Origin: Leptolyngbya sp. SIO1E4
GTDB lineage: Bacteria; Cyanobacteriota; Cyanobacteriia; Phormidesmidales; Phormidesmidaceae
Assembly: GCA_010672825.2 (NCBI GenBank)
Contig: JAAHFU020000001.1
Coordinates: 868,001 to 932,000, forward strand
Length of the DNA stretch: 64,000 nt
Direction: 5' to 3'
Made by a program: the position numbers and the translations under genes. The notes beneath the pieces were generated by a model. That model was not told the origin of the DNA and searched no databases. It saw only the letters and a list, made by a program, of their open reading frames with translations. Below are positions 31,750 to 37,961 of the stretch, piece by piece; positions within the stretch are counted from its first letter, which is position 1, and each line of letters starts with the position of its first letter.

Positions 31750-34311
31750 CTACCCCTGCCGTAAAAGCCAGCGACGAAATAATTCCACAATAATGCGGGC
31801 CTGATCGTCGCGAACTTGCACCACATCGTGGCGCTGCAGCACGTTTAGGGCAGCGTTGAGGGCATCTTTCTCTAGCTGAGTCTGATTTTGCAGGTCTTGA
31901 AGGCTAAGCCCACTTCTGTGGGGAGCTAACCTTTGCAGAATCAGCTGCTGCTGGGGTTCATCTCGCCCGGCCTGATCCCAGATACCGGTGAAGTAGTAGC
32001 GGCCCCGGTTAAAAAACTCGGGTGCCTCAGTAACGATTTCGACATCTTCGACGGTAAAGACGTTCTCGCGCGATCGCTTTTGCTCAAAGACCTGATCGTT
32101 GAAGCGGCGCACTAGCTGAAAGCCCACAAGCTGGGTGAGGTAGGGTTGCCCGGTCGTGAGTTGAGAGATGCGATCCAGCGCTTCGCGTCGGTAGTCTAGC
32201 GGAAACTCGGGGTCAGGGTTGGCCAAGAGCTGCTGTACGGCCCCTGGCTGTAAAAAGCCCACCCGAATGGGGATAACGCTGGCAAAGAAAGGATTGAAAT
32301 AGTCTTGGGTCATTTCTTCCAGGGTGTGCAGCCCGGCGAAGGCAAAGCCTAGCCTGGGGCTCATTTGCATCAGCCCCCGCAGGTAGGCGATGAAATCTGG
32401 CGTTAACTTGCCTGCTTCAATCAGCGCTTCGATTTTTTCAAATTCATCAATGGCGATAATCAGCGTTTCGGTGTCTGCGAGCCCCTCAATCACCCGCTTC
32501 AGGTAGCGATCGAAGGTACGGGTCGGCTGTTCCATTAGCTCGCGATCGCTGGGCGCAGGCACATCTAGGGTTTCAGAAATCTCATCAGTAATGGCCATCA
32601 GCACATCGCTGATAGATTCAGCACTGGCCGATCGCAGCATATTGACGTACACCAGCCGCAACCCCGACCCGACCGTTTTCGCCGCATTCCGTAGGATGGA
32701 AGTCTTGCCCATGCGGCGGTGACCATACAGCACCACCGACTGCATCTGCCGCCCCATCAGCCACAGTTCTTCCAGCTGTCGTAGGATGTCCTCCCGTCCC
32801 ACAAACAGTTCTCCCTCAACCGGATCCCCCACCACGTAAGGATTCCTGACCGGCTGATCAAGGGTTTCCTCACCGACCGAAGTCGCAACATCCAGCAGCG
32901 CATTGCGCCATTGCTTAGCAATGGCCTCAACCAACTGTCGCTCTGCTTCTGGGACTTCCTGAACGTTATTGAGGATGTGCTTGAGTTCGCCCAGCGCCCG
33001 GTTGGAGGCAAAGGCGCGAGCTGTACGAGAGACACTGCCGACGACGGTTTTGGTGTCAGAAATGACGTGGCAAAACCGCTGCAGGGCCCGCCAGGTGACC
33101 GGACGTAAGAAGGGGGAAGCTGGAAAGTTGGGGGGCTCAATGGCGGCAATAGCAGAGACGTCTTCTGCTGTCTTAAACAGAGCCAAGCTCACTGCTAATA
33201 CATGCATCTCTTCGCCGTAGAGGCAATCACGCACAACGGCAAACGCCTGACTTGCCGCGGCAGGAGAATGAGCGTGTAGCAGCCAAAAGCCAGCCGCTGT
33301 TGCATGGGCAGGTGTATCAGTTCTTAATTGTCCCTTTAGTGGACGAGGATAAAAGTGGGCTGAGGCTAATCGAATCAAATTCCAGTCAAAGGGGTGCTCA
33401 GCCAGTTTAGAAATTCGATAAATGATCTGATCATTCGGTAGCCTTGCAAGTAGATCATTAACGGTCTGGACAACCGGTACAAACTGTAGTGAATAAGCCA
33501 GAAGTTCATTGATATTATTCACGCCCAATTCCCAGTCATTTTTGAGCCATCTTTTCAAGGCTGGCCCCACCCATGGAATAGACAGCGGAGTTACTGCCGC
33601 TGGAGAAAGCCAGATTTTCTTAGGAAATCTAGTAAAAATCCCTATTAAATAACTGTCTGGACGAAGGAACGCCACGCCTCCCGCCACGCCTCCCGTCACA
33701 CCGAACGCCACGCCGTACGCCACACCTAACGCCACGCCGAACGCCACGCCGAACGCCACGCCGTACGCCACGCCTCCCGCCACACCTCCCGCCACGCCGT
33801 ACGCCACACCTAACGCCACGCCGTACGCTACGCCGTACGCCACGCCCAACGCCACGCCTCCCGCCACGCCTCCCGCCACACCTCCCGCCACGCCGAACGC
33901 CACGCCCAACGCCACGCCGTACGCCACGCCCAACGCCACGCCGAACGCCACGCCCAACGCCACGCCCAACGCCACGCCGTACGCCACGCCTCCCCAAACA
34001 ATGGGAACTCCGATTTGTTCGAGTCCCCAGGACAACAGCAGCGGCGTAACAACGGTCAAAAATACTCCTTGAAGCAGGAGTTGCCTTTGCACGGGGTTGT
34101 CACGGAGAATTTCTAACACCTTCCGCCAATTCATTTGGTTAGATGGCACATATCCACCACCAAAGGTATCTACATACCAGCGCAGGGCTTGGGGAAAGTA
34201 GAATACCCAGTAGAGCAGCCGCAGGTAGTCCAGCGGGTTCCACAGAGAGAGAGGGCGCTGCAGTTTGGGGGCTAAATCGAGTCGGGGGACTTCGGTTGGT
34301 GGCGGGGGCAT
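31750..34311 (-). CDS. membrane-anchored STAND-like ATPase with 27 GVAX repeats
   Basis: 853 residues from the ATG at 34311, which has GGAGG 7 nt upstream. Parts in order: a conserved N-terminal block with [20 protein letters not shown] (about 20-45); a first hydrophobic segment (75-100); a pure GVAX tetrapeptide array at 108-215; a helical middle domain (about 216-481) with [12 protein letters not shown] and [10 protein letters not shown]; an AAA/STAND-type P-loop domain with Walker [10 protein letters not shown] (K536) and Walker [10 protein letters not shown] (D622, E623); and a winged-helix-like C-terminus. It is a paralog of the next upstream gene (34657-36264), which stops at the residue aligned with 481. 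It is last in a leftward group headed by a TIR-ATPase. The likely role is a sensing or effector ATPase at the membrane; this is inferred. Confidence 0.85.
33667..33990 (-). repeat. 12-bp tandem repeat encoding (GVAX)27
   Basis: Twenty-seven in-frame 12-bp units of the form GGC GTG GCG NNN give the tetrapeptide Gly-Val-Ala-X with X = Tyr, Leu, Phe or Gly. One unit has Thr for Ala. The Gly spacing of four residues makes a continuous glycine-zipper pattern (GxxxGxxxG), suited to packed membrane helices. The near-identity of the DNA units points to recent expansion by slippage or recombination. Confidence 0.95.
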
Positions 34312-34402
34312 GGTTACGCCTCCTGATAGTGGCTGTAGAGGGGTCTGGATCGGCCCATCGGACAAGCGTTCTGCAATGCACCGTCGCGACGTATTCGCTG
34401 CC
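34312..34402 (-). pseudogene. remnant of a second TIR-ATPase 3' end
   Basis: Read leftward, the frame ahead of the 853-residue gene encodes ANTSRRCIAERLSDGPIQ and then PLSGGV. The C-terminus of the TIR-ATPase (36264-37571) has AETSRQFIAKCLANGPIQ in the same order, about 35 residues before its end. At the DNA level both junctions read CCACTATC, then A or G, then GGAGG, a few bases and ATG. About 35 codons are missing between the two blocks. The best explanation is a decayed copy of the TIR-ATPase gene that once preceded this membrane gene. Confidence 0.6.
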
Positions 34403-34477
34403 TCATAGCCTATTCTCAACAATCATCCAAAACAAAAGGCGCGATCACCTGGCACACATTAAGTAGAGACGCAATAG

Positions 34478-34624
34478 ACCTCTTGCACGAATAAAATAAG
34501 GCCCCCTCCTGTCCCCCAATTCTGGGGCAGGCCGTGCTTCAACCGCCCAAAAATACGAAGAAAGTGTTTGGAAGTCCCCTAATTTTGGGGGATTAGGGGG
34601 CCACCCAGAATTGATGCAAGAGGT
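34478..34624. mobile_element. MITE-like element with 10-bp inverted ends (repeat family C)
   Basis: Perfect inverted ends ACCTCTTGCA (34478-34487) and TGCAAGAGGT (34615-34624) frame 127 nt without coding capacity. Inside are palindromic blocks CCCCCAATTCTGGGG and CCCCTAATTTTGGGGGATTA, also seen near 37790-37944. It sits just past the stop of the shortened membrane protein, at the presumed deletion point. No target duplication could be confirmed. Confidence 0.65.
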
Positions 34625-34656
34625 TTAATATATCGTGACTTTATCCAGAGATTACA

Positions 34657-36264
34657 TCACTCACCCACTGAAATATCGGCATCCAGTAAGGCCTGCTGCC
34701 ATTGTTTGGCAATAGCCCTAACCAACTGCCGCTCTGCTTCCGGGACTTCATCAACGTTATCGAGGATGTGCTTGAGTTTGTCCAGAGCCTGGTTAGACGC
34801 CAATGCTTGCTCCGTGCGAGAGACGCTGCCCACAATGGTTTTGGTTTCCAAAATAACGTGGCAGAAGCATTGCAGGGCTCTCCAGGTGACCGGGCGTAAA
34901 TAGGGCGGTTCTGGAAAGTTGGGCGGCTCAATAGCAGCAATAGCAGAGACATTCTCTGCAGTTTCAAACAGGGCTAAGCTCACCGCCAGCGCGTGCATCT
35001 CTTGACCATAAAGACAGTCACGCACGGTATCAAAGGCATGACTCGCCGCAGCGGGTGAATTATCGTGTAGCAGCCAAAAGCCAGCCGCCGTTGCATGAGC
35101 TGGCGTATCTAATCGCAGATTGCAATTGATCAGCGAGACCCATCGTCGCCGGAGAGGCAAGATGAAGAACCGGTCTAAGAATTTTGCTTGGAGGGCGTTT
35201 GGTAAGGAAGCTGAGGTGAAGCGAACTAAGTTCCAGTCGTAGGGGTGCTCGGCCAGTTGAGCCGTGCGATAGATTAGGTGCTCAGAAGAAAGGAGAGACA
35301 GTTCTCGATTGAGGGTTTCTATCGCTGGAAGGAACTGATAGGTATATGCCAAGAGTTGGTTGATGTTCTGTATGCCTGCGGCCCAGTCTTGCCGTAACCA
35401 ATGTCTTAACTGCTTTTGGGTTTGCGGTAAAGTCAGCGGGGTCAAAGCTGCATAACTCAGGTATCTGTTCTGGCCTAGGAGCAGTCCGATAACCCCCAGC
35501 ACCCAGGCATCTAAACGAAGAATGGCTACGCCGACCATTCCCACCACCACCACCACCACCGCCACGCCTAAGGTCATCCCTGCTACTACGCCTACAACCG
35601 CCCCTAATACTAAGATGCCGGTCAAGATGCCCGCCAGGATGCCGACTACACCTACTGTCACGCCGCCCGCCACAACGAACGCCACACCTAGCGTCACACC
35701 TAACACGATGCCGACCGCCACGACACCGGCCCAACCTAACGCCATGACGAACACCACGACGAATCCCATGCCCTCCGCTACGCTGTCTGCCAAGATGAAC
35801 GCCACAATGAGCGCCACGATGCCGGCCACAACGCCCGTCACAGCGAAGGCGACAACAAACGCCACAACGCCCGCCACGCCGAATGCTGCGCTTAATGCCA
35901 CGACACCTGCCACAACGCCCGCCAAGATGAACACCAAAGCCCCCAAATCAATCGGAACTTGAACCTGTTTCAACCATCCAGTTAACAGCAAGAGGGGAAT
36001 GACGAGTAAAAACGCCCCTTGAAGCAATAGCTGCCTTTGTATAGGGTTATCACGAAGAATGTCTAGCCCTTGCTGCCAGTTCATTTTGCTAGGGGGTATG
36101 TAGCCACCGCCGAAGGTCTCCACATACCAACGCAGGGCCTGAGGAAAATAGAACACCCAATAGAGCAGTCGCAGGTAATCCAATGGGTTCCAGGGCGACA
36201 GGGGACGGGTGAGCTGGGGGGCTAAGTCTAGCTGAGGGACTTTAGTTGGGGGCTGTGAAGCCAT
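34657..36264 (-). CDS. membrane protein, paralog lacking the ATPase module
   Basis: 535 residues from the ATG at 36264, with GGAGG 7 nt upstream; a GTG at 36267 is just before. The first 100 residues are nearly the same as those of the 853-residue paralog ([20 protein letters not shown] is identical). The hydrophobic region (about 110-255) is a worn version of the GVAX array, such as LGVTLGVAFVVAGGVTVGVV. The middle domain with [12 protein letters not shown] and [10 protein letters not shown] is again highly similar. The protein ends DISVGE, exactly where the paralog goes on into its ATPase (SVGEETLDQ). Its start overlaps the TIR-ATPase stop (TGATG), so the two are translationally coupled. 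It is either a genuine stand-alone membrane subunit or a truncated ATPase. Confidence 0.82.
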   Translation of the reverse strand: MASQPPTKVPQLDLAPQLTRPLSPWNPLDYLRLLYWVFYFPQALRWYVETFGGGYIPPSKMNWQQGLDILRDNPIQRQLLLQGAFLLVIPLLLLTGWLKQVQVPIDLGALVFILAGVVAGVVALSAAFGVAGVVAFVVAFAVTGVVAGIVALIVAFILADSVAEGMGFVVVFVMALGWAGVVAVGIVLGVTLGVAFVVAGGVTVGVVGILAGILTGILVLGAVVGVVAGMTLGVAVVVVVVGMVGVAILRLDAWVLGVIGLLLGQNRYLSYAALTPLTLPQTQKQLRHWLRQDWAAGIQNINQLLAYTYQFLPAIETLNRELSLLSSEHLIYRTAQLAEHPYDWNLVRFTSASLPNALQAKFLDRFFILPLRRRWVSLINCNLRLDTPAHATAAGFWLLHDNSPAAASHAFDTVRDCLYGQEMHALAVSLALFETAENVSAIAAIEPPNFPEPPYLRPVTWRALQCFCHVILETKTIVGSVSRTEQALASNQALDKLKHILDNVDEVPEAERQLVRAIAKQWQQALLDADISVGE

Positions 36265-37571
36265 CACAACACCTCCCGATAGTGGTTATAAAGTTGATGA
36301 CAAGTCTGCATCAGTTTTTGAGGGCAGCCGTTGCAGGCTTGCACCAGTTGTTCAATTTCTATCTCAGTGAACTGAATGGGGCCGTTAGCTAAGCATTTGG
36401 CAATAAACTGCCGAGAGGTTTCTGCTGGCCAGGGTTGAATGTGTTCTTCTACACACAGACCCTCCAACGGTGAGGTTTGCCCATCTACGTAGCTCTCTGA
36501 AAATAACTTATCCAGCGAGGTGCGAGCGGTGATGACCAGCCGTAAAGGGGCGTCATTGCCTTCTGCCAAGCCTCGGAGTATTTGGCGAATTTTGTAGGTA
36601 AATCCTTCCTGGTTAATCTGTTCGACTTCATCCAACAGCAGCAAGAATTGTTTTTCCTGCCGATACATAGCCCGCACAAACCGGTTGCCGTCTACCGGTT
36701 CCATCCCCAGTTCTTGGCAGAGGTCTTCGTAAAAGTCTTGTTCACTAAAAATCCTTGCTAAATTTAGCCACACTGGGTGTCGGGGCAACGTCAGATATTC
36801 TGCCGCCATGCGATGCACCGCTCGGAGTAGAGACGACTTACCCATATTGGGCTCTCCGATGATCGCTACGCTGCTGCCGCCATTGAGCGATTCAAAAATG
36901 CGTCGGAGGGTCCCTTCACAGTTGAAGAACTGGTCAGCCTCTTCGACGACACCTGTCCGGGGCCAGAAGGGGTTTTTTGCCTCAGGGTCTGAAGCTTTGG
37001 AGTCTGCACTATCCCCAGGTGAAGCTGAGGCTGTGCCATCACTGGGGGTATCCAAAGCGTCTATTGTGCCAGGGAATATTACCTTTTGAGGCACCGAACG
37101 GGTGTCTGCAGAAACAGCTGCTGTGCCAGGAAAGCTGGGTCGGGTATCCGGTTTACCTCTCGGTTTAAGTGCTCTGAGCAGCCGCGCCTCGGCTTCCGTT
37201 TCCGAGATGCCGACGAAATTCACGTAAACAATGGCTTTCAATAGCCCGGGCGGGTCAAAATCTTCTACCCGCACCGGAATCAGCCTGCAGCTTTCCCCGT
37301 TGGGATCTTCGGCAAAAGCAGCCGCCCATTCGGGGGCGGTGTAGGCAGCCTTAAGGTATGACTCTGAGAGCACTGCGATCGTTTGCTTGCACTGAGTCCC
37401 CTTCTGCATCTCTAGGGCAAAGTTCGTACCTGCCCTAAAATCCCAGACATCAATAAAAACTGAGTGTCCAGCTTCTTCTAAAATCCAACCGATCCATTCG
37501 GCCCAGGGGCGATCTTTTCCGGTATAGCTGATAAAGAATTCTTTTTCAGGAGTTTGTGTAGACTCGGTCAT
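36264..37571 (-). CDS. TIR-domain P-loop ATPase (STAND-like)
   Basis: 435 residues. An N-terminal TIR domain (about 10-135) opens KEFFISYTGKDRPWAEWIGW; the putative NADase Glu is E81 in YTAPEWAAAF. A Ser/Pro/Asp-rich linker (135-205) follows. A P-loop domain (about 215-430) has Walker A IIGEPNMGKSSLLRAV (K245) and Walker B LLLLDEVEQ (D314, E315), with the arginine-bearing VITARTS as sensor. This layout is that of bacterial TIR-STAND/AAA proteins; several studied TIR proteins cleave NAD+ on infection. There is no C-terminal sensor repeat, so sensing may fall to the membrane proteins encoded just downstream, the first of which is translationally coupled. An immune role is inferred. Confidence 0.87.
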   Translation of the reverse strand: MTESTQTPEKEFFISYTGKDRPWAEWIGWILEEAGHSVFIDVWDFRAGTNFALEMQKGTQCKQTIAVLSESYLKAAYTAPEWAAAFAEDPNGESCRLIPVRVEDFDPPGLLKAIVYVNFVGISETEAEARLLRALKPRGKPDTRPSFPGTAAVSADTRSVPQKVIFPGTIDALDTPSDGTASASPGDSADSKASDPEAKNPFWPRTGVVEEADQFFNCEGTLRRIFESLNGGSSVAIIGEPNMGKSSLLRAVHRMAAEYLTLPRHPVWLNLARIFSEQDFYEDLCQELGMEPVDGNRFVRAMYRQEKQFLLLLDEVEQINQEGFTYKIRQILRGLAEGNDAPLRLVITARTSLDKLFSESYVDGQTSPLEGLCVEEHIQPWPAETSRQFIAKCLANGPIQFTEIEIEQLVQACNGCPQKLMQTCHQLYNHYREVL

Positions 37572-37961
37572 TAAGCGGGTAATTAGAGAAAATAATCTGA
37601 TAAATAAGTACTCTCACGCTAACTCAGCTCTCGCGCCCAACACCAGACTGATGCATTTCTTGAAAGAAAATGGGTTTGCCTGACTCACCCCATAAGTGGC
37701 CAAAACACCGATTGAGCCTTTGCCTCACCTCACACAACTCATTCAGTGCCTTTAAAGTCAGGACTTACGCATTGGTCCCCTGTATCCTCCAATTCTGGGG
37801 GATGTTGAATCCGATCACCCCTAAGTTGATACTGTTGGCGAAATATTTTGCAAACTTGCGAACTTACTGGGAGCCCCCTAAATCCCCCAATTCTGGGGGA
37901 CTTCCGGCCTTTGCGCCCCCAAATTTGGGGGCGGGGGGCCTCAAATCTACAAACTTAACCC
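37572..37961. repeat. intergenic region with family C repeat blocks
   Basis: The 5' region of the TIR gene. Between about 37780 and 37945 are several blocks of CCTCCAATTCTGGGGGA, CCCCCTAAATCCCCCAATTC and CCCCCAAATTTGGGGG, each self-complementary. They match the inside of the 34478-34624 element but without its 10-bp ends. No gene is visible. Confidence 0.6.

What the first reader, a model, noticed from the sequence alone, without database searches (positions are those of the whole stretch)
34312..36264. Relic of a duplicated TIR/membrane-ATPase unit
Just before the 853-residue gene, the frame encodes a fragment matching the TIR-ATPase C-terminus (TSR..IA..L..GPIQ) and the same CCACTATC-GGAGG-ATG junction. 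The first membrane gene stops exactly where its paralog enters the ATPase. Together this implies [TIR-membrane ATPase] twice in tandem, followed by one deletion that removed the first ATPase module and most of the second TIR gene. This would be a live example of modular shuffling in such systems.
Basis: seen in the sequence. Interest (0 to 1): 0.66.

Follow-up and report, generated by a model that had tools for sequence, protein, structure and literature searches.

The report
Scar of two fused defence-like gene pairs
In this cyanobacterium two neighbouring copies of a two-gene, immune-like switch (a TIR-domain ATPase plus a membrane ATPase) appear to have been fused by deletion, leaving one complete pair, one membrane gene cut off at a domain boundary and a small fossil of the lost gene; the event is ordinary in kind, but it exposes an uncatalogued gene pair whose parts are swapped often.

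Summary
About 90 nt directly upstream of the 853-aa gene are a decayed 3' end of a second TIR-NTPase gene (peptide match beaten by 0 of 1,944 background segments for three of four relatives), including the same Shine-Dalgarno junction. The 536-aa gene stops in the linker where its paralogue enters the AAA ATPase. In 38 relative loci there is one effector-NTPase gene upstream of one membrane-AAA gene, so the ancestral unit is two genes. No relative holds two intact units; one distant parallel (G062) arose separately. "Two units, then deletion" is the best fit, with corrections: (i) the remnant has its own 74-nt internal deletion and a 149-bp TA-flanked MITE sits in the scar, so more than one event happened; (ii) the two membrane genes are not recent duplicates: the 853-aa middle domain groups with a Halomicronema MAG (98/98) and sisterhood with the 536-aa gene is rejected there (p-AU 0.029), though not over the whole shared part (0.116). 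The result is a complete hybrid operon plus an AAA-less membrane paralogue. The cassette, with swappable N-terminal domains (TIR, trypsin, HTH), matches no catalogued system end to end. Its defence function is inferred.

The parts
36264..37571 (-). Gene 1: TIR domain (12-131) + STAND/AAA-type NTPase (about 200-435), 435 aa, intact Walker A (GEPNMGKSS) and Walker B (LLLLDEVE)
   Evidence: Pfam TIR_2 1.1e-31, AAA_22 2.9e-8, nSTAND1 7.5e-7; motifs read in the sequence
34657..36264 (-). Gene 2: AAA-less membrane paralogue, 536 aa as listed from GTG 36267 (ATG 36264), N-terminal motif + TM region + helical domain; ends at the residue equivalent to 481 of the 853-aa protein
   Evidence: keeps 61 of 65 conserved columns; no Pfam or PADLOC match
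34628..34656 (-). Scar segment of unknown origin between the stop of gene 2 and the MITE
   Evidence: no significant similarity to the AAA part of relatives (best p about 0.05)
34477..34625 (+). 149-bp MITE with terminal inverted repeats (GACCTCTTGCA...TGCAAGAGGTT) and TA duplications at 34475-34476 and 34626-34627; a dispersed family in this genome
   Evidence: 29 matches in the own genome; ends defined by aligning copies
34402..34474 (-). Scar segment of unknown origin between the MITE and the recognisable remnant
   Evidence: unique in the genome; no reliable similarity to either gene family
34345..34401 (-). Remnant, part a: AANTSRRCIAERLSDGPIQ, from the C-terminal part of a second TIR/effector-NTPase gene
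34314..34340 (-). Remnant, part b: LYSHYQEA*, last codons of the same lost gene in another frame, after an internal 74-nt deletion; carries the Shine-Dalgarno-like AGGAGG (34324-34319) of the next gene
31750..34311 (-). Gene 3: full-length membrane-AAA ATPase, 853 aa; TM region of (GVAx)n, helical domain, AAA (503-667 matched) with intact Walker motifs, C-terminal winged-helix-like part
   Evidence: Pfam ATPase_2 1.6e-11, AAA_16 1.1e-9; model
33667..33990 (+). 27 copies of a 12-bp repeat that, read on the minus strand, encode the (GVAx)n transmembrane region of gene 3
   Evidence: Tandem Repeats Finder

Best explanation
The locus once held two two-gene units in tandem, each [effector-NTPase][membrane-AAA ATPase]. 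Deletion between them removed the AAA half of the first membrane gene and nearly all of the second NTPase gene. What survives is an operon made of the first unit's TIR-NTPase, an AAA-less membrane protein, a fossil of the second NTPase gene that still supplies the ribosome-binding site of the next gene, and the second unit's complete membrane-AAA protein. The outer two genes form one complete system; the middle gene is a spare or a modulating subunit. Inferred working: the STAND-type NTPase is a threshold switch that, with its membrane-bound AAA partner, assembles on a trigger (probably phage or other invasion) and activates the TIR domain, which most likely depletes or converts NAD+; the membrane protein anchors, senses or permeabilises. 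Shown: gene order, remnant, MITE, domain boundary, single-unit relatives, intact Walker motifs. Inferred: that both units were once complete, the order of events, and the defence function.
For: Remnant and duplicated junction. Single [NTPase][membrane-AAA] units in 38 relative loci, none with two NTPase genes. Truncation at a predicted interdomain linker. AAA module of unit 1 not found elsewhere in the genome. A dispersed MITE lies in the scar. The surviving outer genes share the same nearest relative: TIR-NTPase with G027 (99/97), 853-aa middle domain with G027 (98/98), so they are plausible partners. The 536-aa ORF is open and keeps 61 of 65 conserved columns, within the range of full-length relatives. 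Function: domain content and swapping of the NTPase's N-terminal domain match the pattern of bacterial STAND conflict systems (PMC7159879, PMC8195603).
Against: No relative with two intact units was found. About 100 nt of the scar match neither family. The remnant is short: DNA-level support alone is modest and a profile search is not significant. The two membrane genes are not close duplicates in the middle domain (p-AU 0.029), so a simple recent duplication is unlikely. No experiment shows defence.
Confidence: 0.7

Rival explanations
1. Two full units never stood side by side: a fragment (membrane gene lacking its AAA half plus the tail of an NTPase gene, or an NTPase tail plus a full membrane gene) entered a single resident unit by one crossover at the conserved NTPase/membrane-gene junction.
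For: The TIR-NTPase and the 853-aa gene share the same nearest relative G027, whereas the 536-aa gene does not, as if something were inserted between a resident pair; the near-identical junctions on both sides would permit a crossover; the cassette sits in different neighbourhoods in different genomes.
Against: It needs an incoming piece already broken at the same domain boundary; a tandem plus deletion gives the same structure with fewer assumptions; the first 100 residues weakly group the two paralogues (71/74).
Confidence: 0.17
2. The AAA-less 536-aa protein is a selected, working subunit (decoy, anchor or dominant regulator of the full-length ATPase), not debris. This concerns its present role and does not exclude the best explanation.
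For: Open frame, 61 of 65 conserved columns kept, translational overlap TGATG with the TIR gene, ends just after a complete helical domain.
Against: Three of its four lost conserved residues lie at 432-441 near the new C-terminus; third positions are saturated, so selection after the truncation cannot be measured; no other genome examined has this form.
Confidence: 0.3
3. The remnant is a chance resemblance.
For: Profile search not significant; DNA score reached by 4 of 1,944 segments.
Against: Peptide score beaten by 0 of 1,944 for three relatives, in the right strand, place and order, with the tail codons and the junction also matching.
Confidence: 0.03

Closest known systems
STAND-NTPase conflict systems of multicellular bacteria (nSTAND1, MNS clade 'Npun2340/2341' family; Kaur et al. 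2020 PMC7159879, 2021 PMC8195603)
   Same: STAND-type NTPase with a swappable N-terminal effector or adaptor domain (TIR, trypsin, others); present in cyanobacteria; a two-gene, two-NTPase system (nSTAND2) is described there
   Different: In the passages read, no constant membrane partner with a TM region, helical domain and AAA module is described; the nSTAND2 pair has an inactive NTPase fused to GT4 or HEPN, not seen here. Whether the Npun2340/2341 family is this pair could not be checked
Transposon- and MITE-associated duplication and domain shuffling of conflict loci in Thiohalocapsa (PMC10907252)
   Same: Duplicated STAND/TIR conflict loci with domain exchange and MITE-like repeats
   Different: There it involves diversity-generating retroelement targets; none was looked for here
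PADLOC candidate PDC-S27
   Same: Weak match to the AAA part of most membrane proteins of the family (20 of 23, best E 9.2e-10)
   Different: In the window protein only about 125 residues match, of a 484-residue model; TM and helical parts unmatched
Plant TIR-NLR (RPP1, Roq1)
   Same: TIR followed by a STAND NTPase; among the structure matches
   Different: No LRR sensor; very low identity and poor superposition; a works-like comparison only

Membership tests
TIR domain proteins (Pfam TIR_2) | TIR domain above the curated cut-off | tested here: met
   110.3 bits against cut-off 28, E 1.1e-31
TIR domain proteins (Pfam TIR_2) | NADase activity | not testable with these tools
   A Glu-Trp (EW) in the TIR is conserved in the close TIR members of alignment A2; catalysis untested
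STAND/AAA NTPase (nSTAND1) | Model match and intact Walker A/B in gene 1 | tested here: met
   nSTAND1 29.5 bits against 27.1; AAA_22 34.5 against 27; GEPNMGKSS and LLLLDEVE present
STAND/AAA NTPase (nSTAND1) | Assignment to one STAND clade rather than general AAA+ | tested here: inconclusive
   Marginal bits; best folds are general AAA+ (RFC, ORC, 2qen, 2fna)
Two-gene [effector-NTPase][membrane-AAA] cassette (defined here) | NTPase gene upstream of a membrane-AAA gene on the same strand | tested here: met
   38 relative loci; own locus
Two-gene [effector-NTPase][membrane-AAA] cassette (defined here) | Variable N-terminal domain on the NTPase | tested here: met
   TIR, Trypsin_2 (1.1e-15), LuxR/sigma r4-type HTH (at or just below cut-off), other unmatched domains
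Known anti-phage system (PADLOC) | Full-length match of the components to a system's models | tested here: not met
   Only partial TIR or AAA matches
IS630/Tc1-type MITE | Terminal inverted repeats, TA duplication, many copies | tested here: met
IS630/Tc1-type MITE | Matching IS630/Tc1-type transposase with the same termini in the genome | not tested
   The mobilising transposase was not sought

The most novel reading that the evidence does not exclude
The [swappable-effector NTPase][TM-helical-AAA ATPase] pair is an undescribed, widespread cyanobacterial immune or cell-death system, and this locus shows it being rebuilt by recombination between two diverged units, yielding an AAA-less membrane subunit that is now a working part.
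Probability: 0.25. Interest if true: 0.7.

Novelty: new variant of a known kind. Interest (0 to 1): 0.45.

Why it matters
The scar catches modular turnover of a conflict system between two states. Together with a relative that lost the membrane half instead (G001) and the swapping of N-terminal domains, it points to domain boundaries as the places where such systems break and rejoin. It also leads to a conserved gene pair that the libraries tested do not name as a system.

Tried and rejected
Profile HMM search for the remnant: too short, not significant. Extending the remnant upstream towards the MITE, or finding the lost AAA sequence in the scar: no reliable similarity; one p=0.002 among 24 tests is not trusted. 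Searching the genome for other copies of the scar: unique. Plasmid and viral collections for two intact units: no relative. Homologous location in relatives: the flanking genes (universal stress protein, TauE-like) are not neighbours there and the cassette sits elsewhere. Dating by third positions: saturated. PDB sequence search of the membrane protein: no match. The promoter and terminator scan found nothing above chance.

Full report
Setting. The window lies in a cyanobacterial genome of 8.2 Mb (G000:C1:868001-932000). The finding sits in a minus-strand gene row: a TIR-NTPase of 435 aa, a membrane protein of 536 aa, and a membrane-AAA ATPase of 853 aa.

The remnant. The 57 nt at 34401-34345 encode AANTSRRCIAERLSDGPIQ, matching PAETSRQFIAKCLANGPIQ of the intact gene. 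Four bases later, in another frame, 34340-34314 encode LYSHYQEA*, matching LYNHYREVL*. The intact gene has 78 nt where the remnant has 4, so 74 nt are missing and the frame is broken. The Shine-Dalgarno-like AGGAGG of the 853-aa gene lies within these last codons, as it does for the 536-aa gene in the intact unit. That would explain why this piece was kept (inference). In an empirical test the peptide score against the own TIR-NTPase, G027 and G004 was reached by none of 1,944 window segments; against G014 seven reached it. DNA scores alone are less convincing, and a family profile is not significant on such a short piece.

The scar. Between the 536-aa stop and the remnant stands a 149-bp element (34477-34625) with terminal inverted repeats and TA on both sides, one of 29 matches in the genome. 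The other about 100 nt of scar have no recognisable origin; the longer part is unique in the genome. At least three events are therefore needed: the main deletion, the internal 74-nt deletion and the MITE insertion (or recombination between two MITE copies, which would give the main deletion and the element together; untested).

The truncation. The 536-aa protein ends at the equivalent of residue 481. In a predicted model of the 853-aa protein (mean pLDDT 71, pTM 0.45, TM region unreliable) a mostly confident helical domain ends at 480, a low-confidence linker spans 480-504, and the AAA domain follows. The truncated protein keeps 61 of 65 columns that are at least 90% conserved in 21 full-length relatives; those relatives keep 74-97% of theirs in a leave-one-out count.

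Relatives. In 15 loci from close and distant genomes and 23 further loci, a partner NTPase gene lies upstream of the membrane-AAA gene on the same strand, usually directly. Some are special: in L116 and in Trichodesmium and Okeania there is a gap of 1-2 kb, in G001 the two are fused, in G062 the AAA part runs off the contig, in G027 the pair is spread over two contigs that break in the TM repeat, and the most distant loci are recognised by weak matches. None has two NTPase genes. All 65 genomes of the family held were searched: 13 have the membrane-AAA family at E<=1e-60. One genome, G062, has a short membrane fragment followed by a second membrane gene, separated by a different repeat and cut at a different place, with no NTPase remnant seen. 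It is a parallel, not an ancestor, since same-genus relatives (G046, G049, G052, G060) carry single units.

History. The middle domain puts the 853-aa protein with G027 (98/98) and rejects sisterhood with the 536-aa protein (p-AU 0.029). The whole shared part does not reject it (0.116), and the first 100 residues weakly favour it (71/74). The TIR-NTPase also groups with G027 (99/97), while the AAA part of the 853-aa protein leans to G004 (87/90, not starred). The two units are therefore old or of separate origin, perhaps with gene conversion between them (nucleotide identity 853/536 of 84% against 63% for 853/G027 at residues 385-410). The surviving outer genes are plausible partners.

Modularity elsewhere. 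The NTPase partner's N-terminal part is TIR in the own genome and several relatives, a diverged TIR in G014 (just below Pfam's cut-off), trypsin-like in G309, LuxR/sigma r4-like HTH in G380 and unmatched elsewhere. G001 has a 1,125-aa frame with two TIR-type domains, the NTPase and the AAA part but without the membrane half: the complementary loss.

Function. Both NTPases are AAA+/STAND-like by sequence and fold, and Walker motifs are intact. No PADLOC system fits beyond partial domain matches. From the literature on conflict systems (PMC7159879, PMC8195603) a threshold switch that triggers an effector is the likeliest role; the TIR would act on NAD+ (established for other bacterial TIR effectors; from general knowledge). 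This is inference.

Verdict.

Noticed in passing
L039:6208-9582 (+), G001:C1: 1,125-aa frame fusing two TIR-type domains, the NTPase and the AAA part; the membrane half is missing, the reverse of the loss seen in the window.
   Followed up: partly
L100:6077-7405 (-), G309: Same NTPase with an N-terminal trypsin-like protease domain instead of TIR, in front of a membrane-AAA gene.
   Followed up: partly
L048:1-3318 (-), G062: TIR-NTPase, then a short membrane-gene fragment invaded by a repeat, then a second membrane gene: an independent parallel.
   Followed up: partly
window 33667-33990: 27 copies of a 12-bp unit encode a (GVAx)n transmembrane region. The same region is where the G027 contigs break and where G037 holds unknown residues; its length varies between relatives.
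   Followed up: partly
window 34477-34625: 149-bp MITE family with 29 matches in the genome; the transposase that moves it was not sought.
   Followed up: partly
window 37760-37960: G+C-rich palindromic repeat resembling the MITE's inner part (CCCCCAATTCTGGGGG) upstream of the TIR gene.
   Followed up: no
L044:6856-9981 (+), G135: Membrane-AAA gene split by a stop in its TM region into 216- and 819-aa frames; real split or sequencing error unknown.
   Followed up: no
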